From Caldicellulosiruptor changbaiensis (GTDB taxonomy: Bacteria; Bacillota; Thermoanaerobacteria; Caldicellulosiruptorales; Caldicellulosiruptoraceae), in contig NZ_CP034791.1 in the NCBI RefSeq assembly GCF_003999255.1, forward strand, positions 462,501 through 510,000: a stretch of DNA of 47,500 nt, read 5' to 3'. A model generated the notes under the pieces. That model was not told where the DNA came from. It did no database searches and saw only the letters and a program-made list of their open reading frames with translations. Below are positions 28,950-37,767 of the stretch, in pieces; within the stretch, counting starts at the first letter, position 1; every line of letters begins with the position of its first letter. The position numbers were made by a program, and so were the translations under genes.

Positions 28950-29492
28950 ATGGATGAGAGAGAATTAGTTGAAAGGGCGAAGAAAGACAAGAGATATTTT
29001 GAAAAGTTATATGAGTTCTATTTTGACAAGATATACACTTACATATACTACAAAACATTCAATCATCCACTTACAGAGGATTTGACCAGTGAGACCTTTA
29101 TGAAGGTTTTGAAGTCATTGGACAAGTTCGAGTATAAAGAAAATCATTCCTTTTCAGCTTGGATATTCAAGATTGCTCAAAATGTTGTGAATGACTACTA
29201 CAGAGCTAAAAAAGAATATATAGACATAGAGAAAATAACAAACCACTCAAGTATAAAAACTCCTGAAGATGAGGTTTTTGATAAGATAGAAAAAGACACT
29301 CTAAAAAAGGCACTCTCAAAACTTACAAAAGACCAACAAGAGGTGGTAATTTTACGATATGGTGCGAATATGAAACTAAATGAGATAGCAAAGATGAAAA
29401 ATAAATCAGATGTTGCGATAAGAGCTTTGTTTTTCAGGGCAATCCATTCTTTAAAGGAAATGCTTTTAAAAGAGGTGCATGAAAGTGAATGA
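28950..29492 (+). CDS. ECF-type RNA polymerase sigma factor
   Basis: A 180-residue sigma-70 family protein with region 2 (FEKLYEFYFDKIYTYIYYKT, then LTEDLTSETFMKVLKSLDKF and the FSAWIFKIAQNVVNDYYRAK -10 recognition helix). Region 4 follows (ALSKLTKDQQEVVILRYGAN, LNEIAKMKNKSDVAIRALFF). Regions 1 and 3 are absent, as expected of ECF factors. Its stop overlaps the start of the anti-sigma gene at 29479, a typical co-regulated pair. Its promoter at 28855 has ECF form. The ATG is 14 bases after AGAGAGG. The stimulus is unknown. Confidence 0.9.
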   Translation: MDERELVERAKKDKRYFEKLYEFYFDKIYTYIYYKTFNHPLTEDLTSETFMKVLKSLDKFEYKENHSFSAWIFKIAQNVVNDYYRAKKEYIDIEKITNHSSIKTPEDEVFDKIEKDTLKKALSKLTKDQQEVVILRYGANMKLNEIAKMKNKSDVAIRALFFRAIHSLKEMLLKEVHESE

Positions 29493-30864
29493 TGAAAAGC
29501 TTGATAACTTGTTTGAAGAGGCGTTCAAAGTAGAGTACAGAAAAGAGTTTAAAGAAGATCTTAAAAGTATGCTTCTTAAAGAGTATGACAAAAGAAAAAA
29601 AAGTAGGTTTTATCTCAAGGTTTCAACAGCAGTTGTTGCATGCCTTGTTCTAAGCATTATTCTTTTTCTAAGTTTTAAGCTAAATATGGGAAATTTTAGA
29701 GTTTCAAACACCTCTTTTATGAGAAATGAGATAGAACAAGCACTGAACTTAGACCCGAGCGAAGAGTCCAAAATTCAAGAGCAGTACAGTGTATCAGTGA
29801 AGCAAAAAGAAGATACGAAAAGTGAAGCAGCTTTGCAAGAAGACAAAACTTCAAACCAGAATCAAGAGGAGAAAAATATTTCAGTAAGTTCACAAGAAGG
29901 TAGTAAGAAGATAGTTGAGAAAAAGGCAAGCACCCAAAAGCAACTTTCTCAAAAACAGGAAGAAAAGAGGTCTGCAACTGATAAGATAAGCGCAAAATCT
30001 AAGCTGAATATGAAGACAAAACAGGCGTCAAAAAGTAAGAGTTTGGAAAATCAGAGTACAAGAGTTAAAGCAAATTCACAGGCAAACAGTAAAATGGCAG
30101 AAAATTATAGTAATAAAAATGACAACAAGACATCTAAAAGTAGCACAGCCACAATTGCGACTTTGCCATCGAATGGAGGAACAAGTAACAAAAAGACAGA
30201 ACAAAAAGTTGTAATAAACGAGAAAAATGGAAATATTAATTCAGTTAAAAGTGTATTTACTTCAGTCTATGTTCTAAAAGAAGAAAAGATGAACTTGAAA
30301 GAAGATGACATTGTTATAATCATCAGTGACATTGTCGTTGGTGAGGTTTACAAAAGCTTTTTTGCAGAGAATGTACCAAATTCAGTTTACGTAAGCGTTT
30401 ACCAGGATTATTGCTATTTTGAAGTTCTAAATAAAGAGGATTTTAAACTTATGGCAGATGTGCAAGAAAGCGTAGAAGAGAAGGTTTATAAAGAAGCTAA
30501 GAGTATATTAGATAAACTTGGCCTTGAAGATTATAAAATTTTTGTGACAAGCCAAAACGATGTATACAGAGCAAATATAATATTCTATGTCCAAGGCTAT
30601 GAATTGTATGACTCTCAAGGTTATATTGAGTTTGATAGATTTGGGAAAGTAAAAAAAGGAAAAATCTATCTTAAGAAGTTTTCACCCCTTCAAAAAATGG
30701 AGATTTATGACATACAAACTGCTGCTGCAGAGTTTAAGAAAAGATATAATATCAAAGATATAGATATTTCAAAGATAAAAATTGTCTATAAAAAACAAGA
30801 GGATGTTTATGTTCCGCACCATATCTATGTTAGTGAAAACAAAATATATTGGTTGGAAAAGTAG
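29479..30864 (+). CDS. Membrane-spanning anti-sigma factor with long low-complexity linker
   Basis: A 461-residue protein. Residues 1-43 are a charged cytoplasmic part likely to bind the sigma factor. One membrane span follows (about 44-67). Residues about 90-240 are a Lys/Gln/Ser/Asn-rich low-complexity stretch of the kind that crosses a cell wall. The C-terminal 200 residues form an outside domain (VYVLKEEKMNLKEDD, VYKEAKSILDKLGLEDYKIF, KIVYKKQEDVYVPHHIYVSE) that I do not recognise. The ATG (with AGAGGTG just before) overlaps the sigma gene. Function is inferred from operon position and topology, and ligand sensing at the wall is plausible. Confidence 0.75.
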   Translation: MKVNDEKLDNLFEEAFKVEYRKEFKEDLKSMLLKEYDKRKKSRFYLKVSTAVVACLVLSIILFLSFKLNMGNFRVSNTSFMRNEIEQALNLDPSEESKIQEQYSVSVKQKEDTKSEAALQEDKTSNQNQEEKNISVSSQEGSKKIVEKKASTQKQLSQKQEEKRSATDKISAKSKLNMKTKQASKSKSLENQSTRVKANSQANSKMAENYSNKNDNKTSKSSTATIATLPSNGGTSNKKTEQKVVINEKNGNINSVKSVFTSVYVLKEEKMNLKEDDIVIIISDIVVGEVYKSFFAENVPNSVYVSVYQDYCYFEVLNKEDFKLMADVQESVEEKVYKEAKSILDKLGLEDYKIFVTSQNDVYRANIIFYVQGYELYDSQGYIEFDRFGKVKKGKIYLKKFSPLQKMEIYDIQTAAAEFKKRYNIKDIDISKIKIVYKKQEDVYVPHHIYVSENKIYWLEK

Positions 30865-30882
30865 AGTTTAAAATGATATAAT
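30853..30882 (+). promoter_or_regulatory. Possible promoter of the rsbV-rsbW-sigma module
   Basis: TTGGAA (30853-30858), 18-base spacer, TATAAT (30877-30882), lying over the stop of the anti-sigma gene. It would give the partner-switch genes expression separate from the ECF operon. Confidence 0.5.
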
Positions 30883-30916: not shown

Positions 30917-31225
30917 ATGAACCTTGATTTGAAAGAGAAGGTTTCTGAAAATGGCATTGTGATTGAGCTTAAAGGAGAGCTTGACATATTTTCATCACCT
31001 ACTTTGAAGGACAAGCTTTACACATTGATAGATACATCCTCTTCAGATGTTATTGTTGACATGAACGAGGTTAGTTACATTGACTCAACAGGTCTTGGGG
31101 TGTTTGTTGGTGCACTCAAAAAATCAAAACAAAGGGGTACTAACATAGTTTTAAAAAACCTGAGACCCAATGTGAAAAAGGTATTTACAATAACAGGACT
31201 TGATAAGGTATTCAGAATCGAATGA
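30917..31225 (+). CDS. STAS-domain anti-sigma factor antagonist (RsbV/SpoIIAA-like)
   Basis: A 102-residue single STAS domain. It has IELKGELDIFSSPTLKDKL and the phosphorylation loop SYIDSTGLGVFVGALKKS with the conserved Ser in DSTGLG, which is the residue phosphorylated by RsbW/SpoIIAB kinases. The unphosphorylated form binds the anti-sigma factor and frees the sigma factor. ATG 30917 follows GGAGG (30904-30908) by 8 bases, and a longer frame from 30896 is rejected. First gene of a three-gene partner-switching module with the genes at 31243 and 31604. Confidence 0.9.
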   Translation: MNLDLKEKVSENGIVIELKGELDIFSSPTLKDKLYTLIDTSSSDVIVDMNEVSYIDSTGLGVFVGALKKSKQRGTNIVLKNLRPNVKKVFTITGLDKVFRIE

Positions 31226-31242: not shown

Positions 31243-31599
31243 ATGCACGAAATTATATTAACAATTCCATCCAAAGCTGAATATATTATGGTAGTGAGGC
31301 TTACTTTGTCTGGTATTGCAGCTCGCTGCGGATTTGATTTTGAAACAATTGAGGATTTGAAAATGGCAATCTCAGAAGTATTCAACCTCTTTGACATCGA
31401 AGAAATATCAGATTCAATTTCTATCAAATTTGAAGTTGACAGGAATTTCTTAGGGATTAATATAGATATGCCAACAAATGAGATAAACGAAAATGAACTG
31501 GCAGAAGTAATTCTAAAGACACTTATTGATGATGTAGAGTTTGAAAAATTACAAGACAAGTATAGGGTAAGACTCAAAAAATATCGTCAAGGGGTCTGA
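31243..31599 (+). CDS. RsbW-like anti-sigma factor, ATP-binding boxes lost
   Basis: A 118-residue protein. The first half aligns by eye with RsbW kinases (EYIMVVRLTLSGIAARCGF, then IEDLKMAISEVFNLF with the N-box Glu and Asn). The usual glycine boxes of the GHKL fold (DxGxG and GGLGL) are missing. In their place are INIDMPTNEINENELAEV and TLIDDVEFEKL. It is about 30-40 residues shorter than typical RsbW. It probably still binds the neighbouring sigma factor but may be unable to phosphorylate the STAS partner. Ribosome site GAGGAGG lies 13 bases before the ATG. Confidence 0.75.
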   Translation: MHEIILTIPSKAEYIMVVRLTLSGIAARCGFDFETIEDLKMAISEVFNLFDIEEISDSISIKFEVDRNFLGINIDMPTNEINENELAEVILKTLIDDVEFEKLQDKYRVRLKKYRQGV

Positions 31600-31603
31600 T
31601 TTG

Positions 31604-32377
31604 ATGGTTGATGAGAAAAAGACTATAAATCTTGATGATGCTGAAATAGATAGACTCTTCGAAGAGTATCGAAAGACAAAAGATATAAACCTGAGAAATG
31701 AGCTTGTCAACAGGCATTTGTATATAGCTGAAATTGTTGCCAAAAAGTTTGTAAACAGGGGAATAGAATATGATGATTTATATCAAGTTGCATGTATGGC
31801 GCTAATAAATGCAGTTGAGAGGTTTGAACCCAACAAAGGTTATAAATTTACAAGCTTTGCAACGCCTACAATTATGGGTGAAATTAAGCGCTATTTTAGA
31901 GACAGGGCATCATTAATCAGGCTTCCACGAAGGATTTATGAGACATCAGCTAAAATAAAACTTGCGACCGAGATACTTTCTACAAAGCTAAAGCGGCCAC
32001 CAAAGATAGAAGAGATAGCTCAGCATATAGGCATTACACCTGAAGAAGTCTTAGAAGTAATGGAGGCATCGAACAACTATCTTCCACAGTCACTTGACCA
32101 GACAATGTACGAGGATGAAGAGATGACCTTAGGAGATGTTCTTGGAAAGAGTGATGAAAACCTTGTTCAGATAGAGAACACTGAAGCAGTAAAAAAGGCA
32201 ATAGACAAGTTAAGTCCTTTGGAAAGAGAATTTGTTCAAAAGCGCTTTTTTGAGGAAAAGACCCAAAGAGAGATTGCTGAAGAGATGAAGGTATCGCAGA
32301 TGTACATTTCGAGGCTTGAAAAGAAGGTTTTAAAAAAGCTAAAAGATTTTATTGATGGAACAAAGGCACCTATTTGA
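31604..32377 (+). CDS. SigB/SigF/SigG-family RNA polymerase sigma factor
   Basis: A 257-residue group 3 sigma factor. Region 2 reads NELVNRHLYIAEIVAKKF, DLYQVACMALINAVERF and GYKFTSFATPTIMGEIKRYF. Region 3 contains IRLPRRIYETSAKIK and RPPKIEEIAQHIGIT. Region 4 has LSPLEREFVQKRFFEEKTQ and the recognition helix REIAEEMKVSQMYISRLEKK. It is controlled, by inference, by the two preceding genes as in Bacillus SigB or SigF. Because those genes are not typical spoIIAA-spoIIAB, I read it as a general or stress sigma rather than sporulation SigF. ATG 31604 follows AAGGGG by 9 bases. Confidence 0.88.
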   Translation: MVDEKKTINLDDAEIDRLFEEYRKTKDINLRNELVNRHLYIAEIVAKKFVNRGIEYDDLYQVACMALINAVERFEPNKGYKFTSFATPTIMGEIKRYFRDRASLIRLPRRIYETSAKIKLATEILSTKLKRPPKIEEIAQHIGITPEEVLEVMEASNNYLPQSLDQTMYEDEEMTLGDVLGKSDENLVQIENTEAVKKAIDKLSPLEREFVQKRFFEEKTQREIAEEMKVSQMYISRLEKKVLKKLKDFIDGTKAPI

Positions 32378-32433: not shown

Positions 32434-32521
32434 GCCGAAGTGGTGGAACTGGCAGACGCGCCGGACTCAAAATCCGGTGGCCGCTGAGGCCGTGCGGGTT
32501 CGACTCCCGCCTTCGGCACCA
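32434..32521 (+). tRNA. tRNA-Leu (anticodon CAA), CCA encoded
   Basis: Acceptor strands GCCGAAG and CTTCGGC pair perfectly, followed by A and encoded CCA. The anticodon stem CCGGA/TCCGG holds loop CTCAAAA, giving CAA, which reads UUG. A long variable arm (GGCCGCTGAGGCC) marks a class II tRNA, and the T arm contains GGTTCGACTCC. With the encoded CCA it is 88 bases. Confidence 0.96.
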
Positions 32522-32539
32522 AAAGTGCTCGCAGATAAT

Positions 32540-32580
32540 CCCCTTTTTAAACCTGAAAAGGTTTGAAAAGGGGTTTTTAT
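32540..32580 (+). terminator. Terminator after tRNA-Leu
   Basis: CCCCTTTTTAAACCT pairs with AGGTTTGAAAAGGGG around GAAA, followed by TTTTTATTTTTG. A strong intrinsic terminator. Confidence 0.88.
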
Positions 32581-32726
32581 TTTTGCTTTTTTAAAGTTAA
32601 TAATAATTGTGCAAAATATTGAGCAAAGCAAGGAAAAAAAGATTATTAAGAAGATATGTTAAGAGTACTAATCAAAAGGGTATAAATTATTTTGAAAAAT
32701 CATTTGAAGTGGAAAGGAGTGAAAAA

Positions 32727-33143
32727 ATGCCGCAAATTGAATGGCTTGACCAGTACTCTGTAGGAGTTGAGTCAATAGACAATCAGCACAAAGAGCTGTT
32801 TGCAAGGATAAATAAGCTCTTAGATGCTTGTTCTCAAGGGGAAGGGAAAAAGGTGTTGCCAGAGGTTTTGGATTTTTTAGGTGATTATGTAGTATTTCAT
32901 TTCTCCACAGAAGAAAAGTACATGAAAGAGTATTTATACCCCCACTATGCTGCTCACAAAAATGAACATGATAACTTTGTTGAAACATACAAAAAGTTTC
33001 GAGAGGAGATAGAGAAAGAGGGAGCAGGAGTTGCAGCAGTTATAAAGACAAACAGACTTGTTGTTGACTGGCTCAAAAATCATATCCTTGGAACAGATAG
33101 AAAACTTGGAGCGTTTTTGAAAGAAAAGATGCAATCAAAGTAG
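32727..33143 (+). CDS. Bacteriohemerythrin
   Basis: A 138-residue four-helix oxygen-binding di-iron protein. The ligand set is His21 (NQHKELF), His58 and Glu62 (HFSTEEKYM), His77 and His81 (HKNEHDNF), and His119 and Asp124 (HILGTD), complete for hemerythrin. It binds oxygen reversibly and may store or sense it. In this anaerobe it complements rubrerythrin. ATG 32727 has AAAGGAG 8 bases upstream and fits the domain edge. A longer frame from 32607 is not supported. Monocistronic, ended by the hairpin at 33167. Confidence 0.95.
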   Translation: MPQIEWLDQYSVGVESIDNQHKELFARINKLLDACSQGEGKKVLPEVLDFLGDYVVFHFSTEEKYMKEYLYPHYAAHKNEHDNFVETYKKFREEIEKEGAGVAAVIKTNRLVVDWLKNHILGTDRKLGAFLKEKMQSK

Positions 33144-33166
33144 ATGAATAGATTTCAAAAATTGCA

Positions 33167-33201
33167 AAAAGCTGTCCACCGCAAGGGTAGACAGCTTTTT
33201 T
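33167..33201. terminator. Bidirectional terminator, hemerythrin / ferritin-like gene
   Basis: AAAAGCTGTC (33168-33177) and GACAGCTTTT (33191-33200) form the stem around CACCGCAAGGGTA, in which ACC and GGT can add inner pairs. A run of T follows on + and a run of A precedes, so it serves both converging genes. Confidence 0.82.
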
Positions 33202-33204
33202 TGT

Positions 33205-34470
33205 TTATATACTAACAACTTTTTTCTGTTTTGACCTGCCAATTGAAGTATTATCTTCTTTTCTATTTCTCAAGCTTTCAACTGGGTGTGGCGCCAATTC
33301 AACTCTGTAATCTTCGCCTTTTAAAGTGTTGTGCTTATCAATCACCACATGGCTTGCAACGGAATTTATATCATGGTTCACTTTATTCTGGAACCAGAAA
33401 AACGTATGATTTTCTGGTAGATCATTTACATTTTTTAAATCCTCTTTGTCAGCTGTGATTTCAACCATCTGTGAAAGAACTTTGCGTACATATTCACGCG
33501 TGTCATGGAACAGCAAAAGATTTGGGAACTGTCCACCAGGGATGACCTCGCACCAAGATTTATTCTCATGTTTTTGCAAAAGTTCTGCAGCTTTGTGAAG
33601 ATGGGCAATTTCAGCATCAAGGTGCATCTCCCATATAGATTTTACATTTGAGTCAACCTCAGATTCATAGAATGAGTAATACAGATAGCATTCTGTGTAT
33701 TCATGCAAAAGAAGACTTTCGAACCATGTGAGTCTCGGGTCAATCAGTGAACCGTACTGTGTTACATGTTCTTCTTCCACCAAGGCTATTTCTAAGTAGA
33801 GCTGTCTGCCAAGGTCGTTATAATAAGTGTTGCCAATGTTGTTATAAAAATTCATTGTCTGCTGCTCACCGGCTGTTATAATGAAGATGTTTAACTTTGT
33901 TCTAATATCTGCTTTTTTGAAATCAACGCATCTGCTGACAGTATCATAAGGGTGTCTGTGATGGGCAATTGTCGGCCGACCTGGGATGATTTCGACGTAG
34001 TTTTTTACCAAATTGTTTGCTTGGATGTTTGAATCCATGTCAAGAAGATTTGCATAACGGTAAAGATGGTCAAAATCCTCAAGCAGAATAAAATCAAGTG
34101 TTTGTTTTACATAAGGGTCAGGTTCGTTTTGAGCAAGCCAAGCGGTAAGGTCTACAGCAACGTGTTCGTATCCAATTGTAGTTTCAAGGGGTGTTTCATC
34201 AATTGGCTTTAACCAGTTGATTTGCTTTTGTTGCATCTGCTCAATTCTTCTCATCATTGCTAAATCGCGTCTTACGTCGTTGTCTGTGCAGTGACGGTGG
34301 AACTGATGGGAAAACATCGAGGCTTCAGCTTCAATCCCGTTCATGAGGATTATTCTTGTTTTTGTATAAGGGTCAACTTCATTTTTGCAGTATGACTTGG
34401 GATATATTGTTTTCCAGTCCATGAGAAAATTTTCAATCGGCTTTGGCTTTTCTTCGAATGGGTTGAACAA
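33205..34470 (-). CDS. Large ferritin-like di-iron protein of unknown function
   Basis: A 421-residue soluble, mostly helical protein. It carries repeated carboxylate/histidine motifs: Glu47 and Glu49, Glu102-His103, Glu131 with His135 (LEDFDHLYR), Glu202, Glu232 to His235 (VEEEHVTQYG), Glu257 and Glu260 (LHEYTECYLYY), and Glu287 to His290 (DAEIAHLHKA). Two ExxH motifs with paired Glu are the pattern of ferritin-like four-helix iron sites, so one and perhaps two di-iron centres are possible. It is far longer than ferritin or rubrerythrin, and I know no named function. The start is TTG, with AAAGGAGG 10 bases upstream. It neighbours bacteriohemerythrin, suggesting oxygen or peroxide handling. 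Confidence 0.72.
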   Translation of the reverse strand: MFNPFEEKPKPIENFLMDWKTIYPKSYCKNEVDPYTKTRIILMNGIEAEASMFSHQFHRHCTDNDVRRDLAMMRRIEQMQQKQINWLKPIDETPLETTIGYEHVAVDLTAWLAQNEPDPYVKQTLDFILLEDFDHLYRYANLLDMDSNIQANNLVKNYVEIIPGRPTIAHHRHPYDTVSRCVDFKKADIRTKLNIFIITAGEQQTMNFYNNIGNTYYNDLGRQLYLEIALVEEEHVTQYGSLIDPRLTWFESLLLHEYTECYLYYSFYESEVDSNVKSIWEMHLDAEIAHLHKAAELLQKHENKSWCEVIPGGQFPNLLLFHDTREYVRKVLSQMVEITADKEDLKNVNDLPENHTFFWFQNKVNHDINSVASHVVIDKHNTLKGEDYRVELAPHPVESLRNRKEDNTSIGRSKQKKVVSI

Positions 34471-36319: not shown

Positions 36320-36520
36320 ATGGTAACTGATTACATGTCTGTAAATGAAGCTTCAAAAAAGTGGGGCATTTCCGTCAGGCGCATACAAAAGCTGTGTGCG
36401 GAAAACAGAATAAACGGCGCTGTGCGTTTCAGCCGTGTATGGGCAATACCGAGAAACGCCCAAAAACCCATTGATGGCAGACTTAAGTCACAAAGAGAGA
36501 GGAAACAAAACAGAGCATGA
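36320..36520 (+). CDS. Small helix-turn-helix DNA-binding protein
   Basis: A 66-residue protein with a MerR/excisionase-like winged helix (DYMSVNEASKKWGISVRRIQ, KLCAENRINGAVRFSRVWAI, PRNAQKPIDGR) and a basic tail. Such proteins are common next to mobile-element genes as regulators or excision factors. The ATG follows GGGTGAAT by a short spacing. It lies 19 bases before the sigma factor gene, likely in one transcript. Confidence 0.75.
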   Translation: MVTDYMSVNEASKKWGISVRRIQKLCAENRINGAVRFSRVWAIPRNAQKPIDGRLKSQRERKQNRA

Positions 36521-36539
36521 AAATGCGGGAGGTGACAAA

Positions 36540-37082
36540 ATGCTTCCAATATATCTGGCGATGCTTGACGGCGAAGAGGATAAAAATAAATTTGAATTGC
36601 TTTATGTTACATACAGGAAGCTTATGTTCTATGTCGCCAACCGCATCCTAAATGATGAACGGTTCGCCGAGGACGCTGTACATCAGACGTTTTTGAAAAT
36701 TCTTGAGAATTTCGATAAAGTGGGAGAAATTTCCTGTCACAAAACTAAGAGCTACATTGTTACTATGGTTAGAAACACCGCCATCAATTTATATAACCAA
36801 AGAAAAAGGCATACAACAATTCCCCTTGAGGATGTGGAATACTGTATAACGACCGAACCAATAAGCGTTGCGGAGGATTTGGATCATCTTGCAAGGGCGG
36901 TATTGAAGCTGCCTGTTATATATAAAGATGTGCTGACACTGAAATATGTTCAAGAGTTTTCAAATGAAGAAATAGCAAAGATGTTGGATATATATGAGAC
37001 GACGGTTAGGAAGCGGCTTGAGCGCGCAAAACGCAGGCTTGAGGAAATTCTGGAAAGGGAGGAAAGCGCCGATGTCAATTAG
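36540..37082 (+). CDS. Sigma-70 family (ECF-like) sigma factor, island
   Basis: A 180-residue sigma factor with region 2 (FELLYVTYRKLMFYVANRIL, ERFAEDAVHQTFLKILENFD, KSYIVTMVRNTAINLYNQRK) and region 4 (LPVIYKDVLTLKYVQEFSNE, EIAKMLDIYETTVRKRLERA). No region 1 or 3. GGGAGGTGA lies 5 bases before ATG 36540. Its stop overlaps the start of a DUF4367-type anti-sigma gene, the usual pairing. Codon use is more GC-rich than in the host-type genes around it. Likely targets are the matching promoters at 37805 and 40863. Confidence 0.88.
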   Translation: MLPIYLAMLDGEEDKNKFELLYVTYRKLMFYVANRILNDERFAEDAVHQTFLKILENFDKVGEISCHKTKSYIVTMVRNTAINLYNQRKRHTTIPLEDVEYCITTEPISVAEDLDHLARAVLKLPVIYKDVLTLKYVQEFSNEEIAKMLDIYETTVRKRLERAKRRLEEILEREESADVN

Positions 37083-37767
37083 TTTTACGGAAGACATGCT
37101 TAAAGAAGCCGTCATTAAAGCGGACATATATGAGATAGAAACCCTGCCTACAGACGATGAAATAGAGTATGAGTTCTCAAATGAGTTTGAACGAAAGATG
37201 GAAAGGCTTATACGCCGAAGCAAAACAAGAAACCTGATTGGAGGAATGGCATTTTTGCGCAGGCGTGTGGTTGCTTTGATTGCAGCAATAATTATCCTGT
37301 TTGCGTCCGCAATGAGCGTATCGGCTGTGCGTGCCGCGGTATTTGAATTCATAACCGAGGTGTACGAAAAATTCACTCATATATTCTTTAATGAAAGCCG
37401 GTCATCTCAGGATGCGGCCGATGGATTTGCCATATATGAACCAGCCTATATACCGGAAGGCTTTAAACTGGTCAATAAAAACACCGACGGCCTTGTTCTG
37501 CTGGAATATGAAAAGGAAAATGATTTTATATCCTACAGCCAACAGTGCCTTGAAAACGTTTCAATCAACATAAATACAGAAGGTGTAAAACTGGAAGAAC
37601 TTGAGTTCAAAGGTTTACCGGCCAAGTATTATTCCAATCAGGGCGTTCAAAACCTGGTCTGGTACGATGATAAGTATATGTATACGGTGTCATCAACACT
37701 GGATAGAGACATCGTGTTTAAGATTGCGGAAAGCGTTGAAATTACAGGCACGGACTTAAGTCCATAA
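37072..37767 (+). CDS. Anti-sigma factor with DUF4367-like outside domain
   Basis: A 231-residue protein. Residues 1-60 are an acidic and then basic cytoplasmic part. A membrane span (about 65-85, VVALIAAIIILFASAMSVSA) follows, with VRAAVFEFITEVYEKFTHIF after it. The C-terminal outside domain reads YIPEGFKLVNK, YSQQCLENVSININTEGVK, GLPAKYYSNQGVQNLVWYD and MYTVSSTLDRDIVFKIAESV, the pattern of DUF4367. Such proteins hold the co-encoded sigma factor at the membrane. ATG 37072 has GGGAGG about 9 bases upstream and overlaps the sigma gene by 11 bases. Confidence 0.82.
   Translation: MSISFTEDMLKEAVIKADIYEIETLPTDDEIEYEFSNEFERKMERLIRRSKTRNLIGGMAFLRRRVVALIAAIIILFASAMSVSAVRAAVFEFITEVYEKFTHIFFNESRSSQDAADGFAIYEPAYIPEGFKLVNKNTDGLVLLEYEKENDFISYSQQCLENVSININTEGVKLEELEFKGLPAKYYSNQGVQNLVWYDDKYMYTVSSTLDRDIVFKIAESVEITGTDLSP

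What the first reader, a model, noticed from the sequence alone, without database searches (positions are those of the whole stretch)
31243..31599. RsbW-like protein that has lost its ATP-binding glycine boxes
The STAS partner keeps its phosphorylatable DSTGLG and the sigma factor is intact, yet the switch protein between them keeps only the N-terminal half of the kinase fold. It may be a pseudokinase anti-sigma, giving a partner switch that works without phosphorylation or with a kinase from elsewhere.
Basis: partly seen in the sequence, partly recalled or inferred. Interest (0 to 1): 0.6.

Follow-up and report, generated by a model that had tools for sequence, protein, structure and literature searches.

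The report
Kinase-dead RsbW anti-sigma, separate kinase
In this heat-loving bacterium (and, separately, in many other clostridia) the protein that normally both holds back a stress sigma factor and phosphorylates its own release factor has lost its whole ATP pocket but kept its partner-binding surface, and a stand-alone kinase plus a sensor phosphatase found elsewhere in the same genomes most likely took over the lost job.

Summary
The 118-aa protein at 31243-31599 is an RsbW homologue without an ATP site. It lies between an RsbV-type STAS protein (Ser57 in DSTGLG) and an intact SigB/F-type sigma factor. It is not "only the N-terminal half": a confident model (pLDDT 93) matches B. subtilis RsbW end to end (Z 18.4, 1.6 Å), with the ATP lid, G1 and G2 deleted and the N box ruined. 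The loss is fixed in 13/13 Caldicellulosiruptoraceae-type genomes under purifying selection. An independent, recurrent loss runs through a large clostridial order (Tissierella, Soehngenia, small Peptoniphilaceae-like genomes). The residues that contact RsbV (R19, D38, K40, E45) are kept almost without exception.

46 of 47 genomes with a pocketless RsbW carry a stand-alone GHKL kinase with intact N/G1/G2. The exception also lacks RsbV. A PAS-PP2C phosphatase came with the kinase in nearly every genome tested for both. In 26 small genomes RsbV is the only STAS protein. Best reading: a split partner switch with a nucleotide-free anti-sigma and kinase and phosphatase acting in trans, as shown biochemically in Mycobacterium smegmatis (RsbW1/RsbW2). 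I found no clostridial report. New variant of a known kind; no biochemistry yet.

The parts
30853..30882 (+). Likely sigma-A type promoter TTGGAA-N18-TATAAT of the three-gene operon
   Evidence: Hexamers and spacing kept in the 12 Caldicellulosiruptor-type upstream regions aligned; read by eye; the -35 part overlaps coding sequence of the upstream gene.
30917..31225 (+). RsbV-type STAS anti-anti-sigma protein, 102 aa; phospho-acceptor Ser57 (31085-31087) in YIDSTGLG
   Evidence: Pfam STAS 9e-24, TIGR00377 anti-anti-sigma over cut-off; DS[TSC]G present in 202 of 204 operon STAS proteins, the other two reading DSTA.
31243..31599 (+). RsbW*: RsbW-like anti-sigma without N/G1/G2 boxes or ATP lid, 118 aa; keeps R19, D38, K40, S44, E45
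31604..32377 (+). SigB/SigF/SigG-family sigma factor, 257 aa, regions 2, 3 and 4 intact
   Evidence: TIGR02980 2e-76 over curated cut-off; Pfam regions 2, 3, 4 over cut-off.

Best explanation
The protein is a catalytically dead, probably nucleotide-free RsbW that acts only as anti-sigma factor and RsbV receptor. Its dimer sequesters the SigB-like sigma factor. Unphosphorylated RsbV displaces the sigma factor by binding the same alpha1/alpha2 surface. Phosphorylation of RsbV Ser57 blocks this, because Ser57 would sit against the invariant Glu45. Phosphate is put on by a stand-alone GHKL serine kinase encoded elsewhere (G000:C1:359610-360035, 150 aa, next to tadA) and taken off by a PAS-PP2C phosphatase (G000:C1:2886712-2887791), which is the likely sensor input. 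Shown here: loss of the pocket, compact RsbW fold, retention of the RsbV-contact residues, purifying selection, co-occurrence of the kinase and phosphatase. Inferred: sigma binding, the kinase-substrate and phosphatase-substrate links, the direction of the switch, and nucleotide independence.
For: Model pLDDT 93.4 with a short loop (77-84) where the lid should be; best PDB match B. subtilis RsbW 6m37_C, Z 18.4, 1.6 A over 111 residues, and SpoIIAB at Z about 16. Published RsbV contacts of RsbW (R23, D42, K44, S48, E49; PMC7340262) are R19, D38, K40, S44, E45 here, all invariant in the family. Over 207 operon loci R and E are 207/207, while the N53, G1 and G2 set is degenerate in 136 and kept in 71. 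Kinase: E<1e-25 in 46/47 pocketless-RsbW loci against 8/42 full-RsbW loci; N, G1, G2 residues invariant in its alignment, and no conserved Arg at the R19 position. PAS-PP2C: 46 of 80 genomes at E<1e-95, the same 46 that hold the kinase, apart from one outlier for the kinase. Within the class, 8/8 tested genomes with the operon have both and 0/12 without it. 26/26 genomes of family f30 have exactly one STAS protein over the curated cut-off, the RsbV of this operon. The one pocketless case without the kinase (G321) also lacks RsbV and PAS-PP2C. M. smegmatis RsbW1 (anti-sigma, no kinase activity) and RsbW2 (kinase, does not bind SigF) show that such a split works (PMC7693655).
Against: No biochemistry. 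The kinase and phosphatase genes are not linked to the operon. The kinase also occurs in 8 of 42 full-RsbW loci, so its presence does not require the loss. Correcting for kinship leaves only 3 independent contrasts on supported branches, too few for significance. G000 also has SpoIIAB and another HATPase (L003) that could act on RsbV. The N-box Glu, the presumed catalytic residue, is retained.
Confidence: 0.72

Rival explanations
1. Phosphorylation-free switch: RsbV is not phosphorylated, and sigma activity is set by the RsbV:RsbW* ratio or by another signal on RsbW* or RsbV.
For: RsbW* itself cannot plausibly phosphorylate RsbV. One lineage (G321) keeps a degenerate RsbW and the sigma factor after losing RsbV, kinase and phosphatase, so RsbW* can persist without a phospho-cycle.
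Against: The phospho-acceptor Ser motif is kept in 202/204 operon STAS proteins, and a kinase and a PP2C accompany the system. In small genomes RsbV is the only STAS substrate they could have.
Confidence: 0.09
2. The kinase for RsbV is SpoIIAB from the sporulation operon (or L003), and the stand-alone GHKL protein does something else.
For: G000 has a canonical SpoIIAA-SpoIIAB-SigF operon with intact motifs.
Against: Family f30 genomes have a single STAS protein, and so no SpoIIAA-type protein, yet keep RsbW*, RsbV and the stand-alone kinase. Other members of the class tested lack the operon and lack the stand-alone kinase and PAS-PP2C.
Confidence: 0.06
3. The stand-alone GHKL protein is RsbT-like: it activates the PAS-PP2C by binding, or phosphorylates an RsbS-like scaffold, rather than phosphorylating RsbV.
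For: It co-occurs with the PP2C as tightly as with RsbW*; in B. subtilis the GHKL protein RsbT activates RsbU by binding (established knowledge).
Against: No RsbS or RsbR-type STAS protein was found in the 26 f30 genomes. Best family models are RsbW/SpoIIAB. Something must phosphorylate RsbV for a PP2C to be useful.
Confidence: 0.09
4. RsbW* still binds nucleotide or has a cryptic kinase activity by an unusual site.
For: The N-box Glu is invariant, and kinases lacking standard motifs exist in other folds.
Against: Lid, G1 and G2 are physically deleted; the loop that replaces them is short and variable and lies in the fastest-evolving region (dN 0.10-0.36 in residues 51-82 against 0.01-0.04 in residues 1-50). 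The invariant Glu has another explanation: it contacts the acceptor Ser in the RsbV-RsbW structure.
Confidence: 0.04

Closest known systems
RsbW / SpoIIAB anti-sigma kinases (B. subtilis, GHKL HATPase_c_2)
   Same: rsbV-rsbW-sigB gene order, RsbV-contact residues, whole fold apart from the lid (Z 18.4 to 6m37_C).
   Different: No N, G1 or G2 boxes and no ATP lid; 118 aa instead of 140-160; below the curated cut-offs of RsbW, SpoIIAB and HATPase_c_2 models.
Mycobacterium smegmatis SigF partner switch: RsbW1 (anti-sigma, no kinase activity) with RsbW2 (kinase, no SigF binding) (PMC7693655)
   Same: Anti-sigma and kinase functions divided between two GHKL proteins; STAS Ser as the switch; PP2C phosphatase proposed.
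   Different: Different phylum. Here the pocket segment is physically deleted, the loss is recurrent within Clostridia, the partner kinase is a small stand-alone family with another genomic place, and the phosphatase is a PAS-PP2C.
M. tuberculosis UsfX (8ih8, 8jzt) and Rv1364c RsbW domain (3ke6)
   Same: RsbW-fold anti-sigma proteins outside the canonical kinases, matched by the model at Z 14.5-16.8; a paper title cited in PMC7693655 reports loss of kinase activity for Rv1364c.
   Different: Longer chains (about 130 residues in the structures), distant sequences (15-16% identity) from actinobacteria.
Clostridioides difficile RsbV-RsbW-SigB with PP2C RsbZ (PMC10210984)
   Same: Clostridial SigB partner switch with a separate PP2C.
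   Different: The Clostridioides-type RsbW read here (L156) has intact N/G1/G2, and that genome shows no stand-alone kinase of this family.

Membership tests
RsbW equivalog (TIGR01924 / NF003144) | Whole-protein score over the curated cut-off | tested here: not met
   58.5 of 155 and 65.6 of 145 bits, matching mainly residues 3-72.
RsbW equivalog (TIGR01924 / NF003144) | Gene order rsbV-rsbW-sigB | tested here: met
   STAS, RsbW* and SigB/F sigma adjacent in the window and in relatives.
RsbW equivalog (TIGR01924 / NF003144) | Serine kinase activity on RsbV (ATP pocket: N box, G1, G2, lid) | tested here: not met
   All boxes lost, 52 aa instead of 65-79 between N-box Glu and TLxDE; lid absent in model. 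Activity itself not assayed.
RsbW equivalog (TIGR01924 / NF003144) | RsbW fold | tested here: met
   6m37_C Z 18.4, rmsd 1.6 A, 111 residues, model 2-116.
RsbW equivalog (TIGR01924 / NF003144) | RsbV-binding residues R23, D42, K44, S48, E49 | tested here: met
   R19, D38, K40, S44, E45, invariant in 13 genomes.
RsbW equivalog (TIGR01924 / NF003144) | Binds and inhibits its sigma factor | not testable with these tools
   No complex prediction or binding assay available; only the operon link and the invariant Arg support it.
Pfam HATPase_c_2 (PF13581) | Score over gathering cut-off | tested here: not met
   20.3 bits against 27.4, matching positions 1-41 of 127.
Split partner switch as in M. smegmatis RsbW1/RsbW2 | Anti-sigma protein without kinase motifs | tested here: met
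Split partner switch as in M. smegmatis RsbW1/RsbW2 | Second GHKL protein with intact N, G1, G2 in the same genome | tested here: met
   G000:C1:359610-360035, Pfam HATPase_c_2 4e-17 over cut-off, motif residues invariant in A4.
Split partner switch as in M. smegmatis RsbW1/RsbW2 | The second protein phosphorylates the STAS protein and does not bind sigma | not testable with these tools
   Only indirect: co-occurrence, RsbV as sole STAS protein in 26 genomes, no conserved Arg at the R19 position.
SpoIIAB (TIGR01925) | Score over the curated cut-off | tested here: not met
   17.7 of 135 bits; the genome's real SpoIIAB is elsewhere (200.8 bits).

The most novel reading that the evidence does not exclude
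RsbW* works in a switch with no phosphorylation of RsbV at all: a nucleotide-free anti-sigma controlled only by how much RsbV is present or by a ligand, with the stand-alone kinase and PAS-PP2C serving another purpose. The G321 lineage, which keeps a degenerate RsbW and sigma after losing RsbV, kinase and phosphatase, shows that such a protein can outlive the phospho-cycle.
Probability: 0.09. Interest if true: 0.75.

Novelty: new variant of a known kind. Interest (0 to 1): 0.57.

Why it matters
RsbW-type proteins are usually described as one molecule that is both the sigma trap and the kinase of its own antagonist, and kinase activity is generally assumed from the name. Here a large part of the clostridia with this operon cannot follow that rule. 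The kinase function probably sits in a separate small protein, and the anti-sigma protein has shed its ATP site in at least two lineages. This gives a natural experiment on what the ATP site is for in partner switching, names a specific kinase and PAS-PP2C phosphatase for many uncharacterised SigB systems, and offers a reason why the N-box Glu is kept when everything else of the active site is gone (it contacts the acceptor serine). All of it is testable with purified proteins from harmless thermophiles.

Tried and rejected
Sequencing error or decaying pseudogene: rejected, 13/13 genomes, dN/dS about 0.1. N-terminal fragment of RsbW: rejected by the model. One shared loss for all pocketless RsbW proteins: rejected on the sigma-factor tree (p-AU 0.0025), with the window's family as its own clade (100*) outside the clostridial clade (96*); midpoint root and quick trees, so the exact number of losses (the tree counts 8 changes of state) is unsure. 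First genome-contig scan with the single protein found nothing. Kinship-corrected association test: underpowered, 3 pairs. SigB-type autoregulatory promoter upstream of rsbV: not seen; only a sigma-A-like promoter is conserved. Literature: searches for RsbW with pseudokinase, Caldicellulosiruptor partner switch, Tissierellales SigB and anti-sigma lacking kinase gave no report of this in clostridia; only open-licence papers were searched.

Full report
What is there. The window (G000:C1:462501-510000 of a 2.9 Mb genome; from its relatives and genome size I take it to be a Caldicellulosiruptor, but no tool named it) carries a three-gene unit. It consists of an RsbV-type STAS protein (30917-31225), the 118-aa protein of the finding (31243-31599) and a SigB/SigF/SigG-family sigma factor (31604-32377). 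The genes are 17 and 4 bases apart, and a sigma-A-like promoter ahead of the STAS gene is conserved. The middle protein is an RsbW homologue by sequence (NCBIfam RsbW 3e-18; B. subtilis RsbW 1.8e-11), yet it falls well under the curated cut-offs.

The ATP site is gone; the fold is not. In an alignment with full-length RsbW and SpoIIAB the N box reads ISEVFNLF instead of SEACTNAV, and G1 and G2 are missing. The stretch between the N-box Glu and the TLxDE motif is 52 residues, against 65-79 in full RsbW. AlphaFold2 gives a confident compact model (pLDDT 93.4, pTM 0.86) whose strands and C-terminal helix are all present, with a short loop at 77-84 in place of the lid. Its best PDB match is B. subtilis RsbW (6m37_C, Z 18.4, 1.6 Å, 111 residues, model 2-116), followed by M. 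tuberculosis UsfX and SpoIIAB.

It is a functional gene. All 13 genomes of the family held have it, 54-97% identical to the window's copy, with 43 invariant columns concentrated in residues 4-50. dN/dS is 0.08-0.17 within the genus (0.28 to the sister genus); the region that replaces the pocket is the fastest-evolving part. Other members of the same class lack both this protein and the sigma factor.

What was kept. The published B. subtilis RsbV-RsbW structure lists Arg23, Asp42, Lys44/Ser48 and Glu49 of RsbW among the contacts to RsbV, with Glu49 touching the acceptor Ser56 (PMC7340262). By the ungapped alignment these are R19, D38, K40, S44 and E45 here, all invariant in the family. Over 207 operon loci, Arg and Glu are present in 207/207 and Asp/Lys nearly always, whereas the N53/G1/G2 set is intact in 71 and degenerate in 136. 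The partner-binding face is under selection and the ATP face is free to decay. The invariant Glu is then best read as the contact that senses whether the serine is phosphorylated (inference).

It is not a curiosity of one genus. A profile search reached the same kind of protein in a large order of clostridia (139 of 150 genomes with a homologue, most 112-143 aa). Named members include Tissierella, Schnuerera, Tepidimicrobium, Anaerosalibacter, Soehngenia, Gudongella, Caloranaerobacter and Thermohalobacter. Clostridioides, Terrisporobacter, Peptostreptococcus, Alkaliphilus, Natronincola, Anaeromonas and Bacilli have intact RsbW. On a sigma-factor tree the window's family is its own clade outside the clostridial clade that contains both intact and degenerate forms, and a single clade of all degenerate forms is rejected (p-AU 0.0025). 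The loss happened at least twice.

Where the kinase went. All 50 genomes of a first survey contain SpoIIE-domain phosphatases and HATPase_c_2 proteins. Following these up gave two specific families: a 130-150 aa stand-alone GHKL protein with invariant N, G1 and G2 residues (alignment A4; in G000 next to tadA, in the clostridial order near lon and typA), and a 365-390 aa PAS-PP2C (A5; Pfam PAS plus SpoIIE). In 80 chosen genomes the PAS-PP2C is present at E<1e-95 in 46, and the stand-alone kinase at E<1e-25 in the same 46 plus one outlier (G063). They occur in 8/8 genomes tested of the window's family and 0/12 of its class relatives without the operon. With named genomes added, 46 of 47 pocketless-RsbW loci have the kinase against 8 of 42 intact-RsbW loci. 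The eight show that the kinase can coexist with an intact RsbW, which fits acquisition first and decay later. This association is strong in raw counts (Fisher 8e-16) but rests on few independent events: only three independent contrasts on supported branches, not significant.

Who is the substrate. In 26 small genomes of one family (1.3-2.3 Mb, probably Peptoniphilaceae, inferred) exactly one STAS protein passes the curated cut-off: the RsbV beside the pocketless RsbW. Several of these genomes have the stand-alone kinase as their only HATPase_c_2 match and the PAS-PP2C as their only SpoIIE-domain protein. The kinase and phosphatase have no other STAS partner that this search can see. The single exception to co-occurrence, G321, has lost RsbV too: gyrA, then a degenerate RsbW, then the sigma factor, with no STAS protein, no stand-alone kinase and no PAS-PP2C found in the genome.

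Mechanism. Best reading (0.72): RsbW* is a nucleotide-free sigma trap, the stand-alone kinase phosphorylates RsbV Ser57 and keeps the sigma factor off, and the PAS-PP2C removes the phosphate in response to a signal, so that RsbV docks on RsbW* and frees the sigma factor. The stand-alone kinase lacks a conserved Arg at the R19 position, and its model keeps a long flexible lid (residues 85-114, low confidence there) with closest matches RsbW and SpoIIAB. The complementary losses fit a division of labour. Steps not shown: sigma binding, phosphorylation of RsbV, and the direction of the switch.

Known or new. A split of this kind is established in M. smegmatis, where RsbW1 binds SigF but has no kinase activity and RsbW2 phosphorylates RsfB but does not bind SigF (PMC7693655). 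I found no description of it in clostridia or Caldicellulosiruptor (open-licence papers only). I therefore call it a new variant of a known kind: an independent and recurrent evolution of the same arrangement, carried to physical deletion of the pocket, with a specific kinase and PAS-PP2C partner. It is not filed as an RsbW equivalog, because a defining feature (kinase motifs) was tested and not met; it works like the anti-sigma half of RsbW.

Noticed in passing
window 28950-30864: ECF sigma factor (28950-29492) overlapping a 461-aa protein with one apparent transmembrane stretch and no Pfam match (29479-30864), directly upstream of the rsbV promoter: apparently a second sigma/anti-sigma module back to back with this one.
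   Followed up: partly
window 36435-37767: A third sigma module: ECF sigma factor (36435-37082) overlapping a DUF4367 protein (36994-37767).
   Followed up: partly
L026 (G321): gyrA, degenerate RsbW, sigma factor with rsbV lost, in a genome without any detected STAS protein, stand-alone kinase or PAS-PP2C: an anti-sigma/sigma pair stripped of its switch.
   Followed up: partly
L090:5710-6804 (G000 PAS-PP2C) and alignment A5: The PAS domain of the phosphatase carries a Cys pattern (CY, then CxxCI) in the window's family and several clostridial proteins, absent in others: possible metal or redox sensing.
   Followed up: no
L003 (G000:C1:1438249-1438599): Another small HATPase_c_2 protein beside a gene for a hydrogenase-like 4Fe-4S protein, conserved in the family; role unknown.
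   Followed up: no
L210 (G457), L198 (G434), L148, L160: Intermediate RsbW proteins in which only some ATP-site residues have changed (for example N-box Asn to Ser with G1 and G2 intact): a graded series of pocket loss.
   Followed up: partly
window 32434-34470: tRNA-Leu (32434-32521), a haemerythrin-domain protein (32607-33143) and, on the other strand, a 421-aa protein without Pfam match (33205-34470) just downstream of the operon.
   Followed up: no
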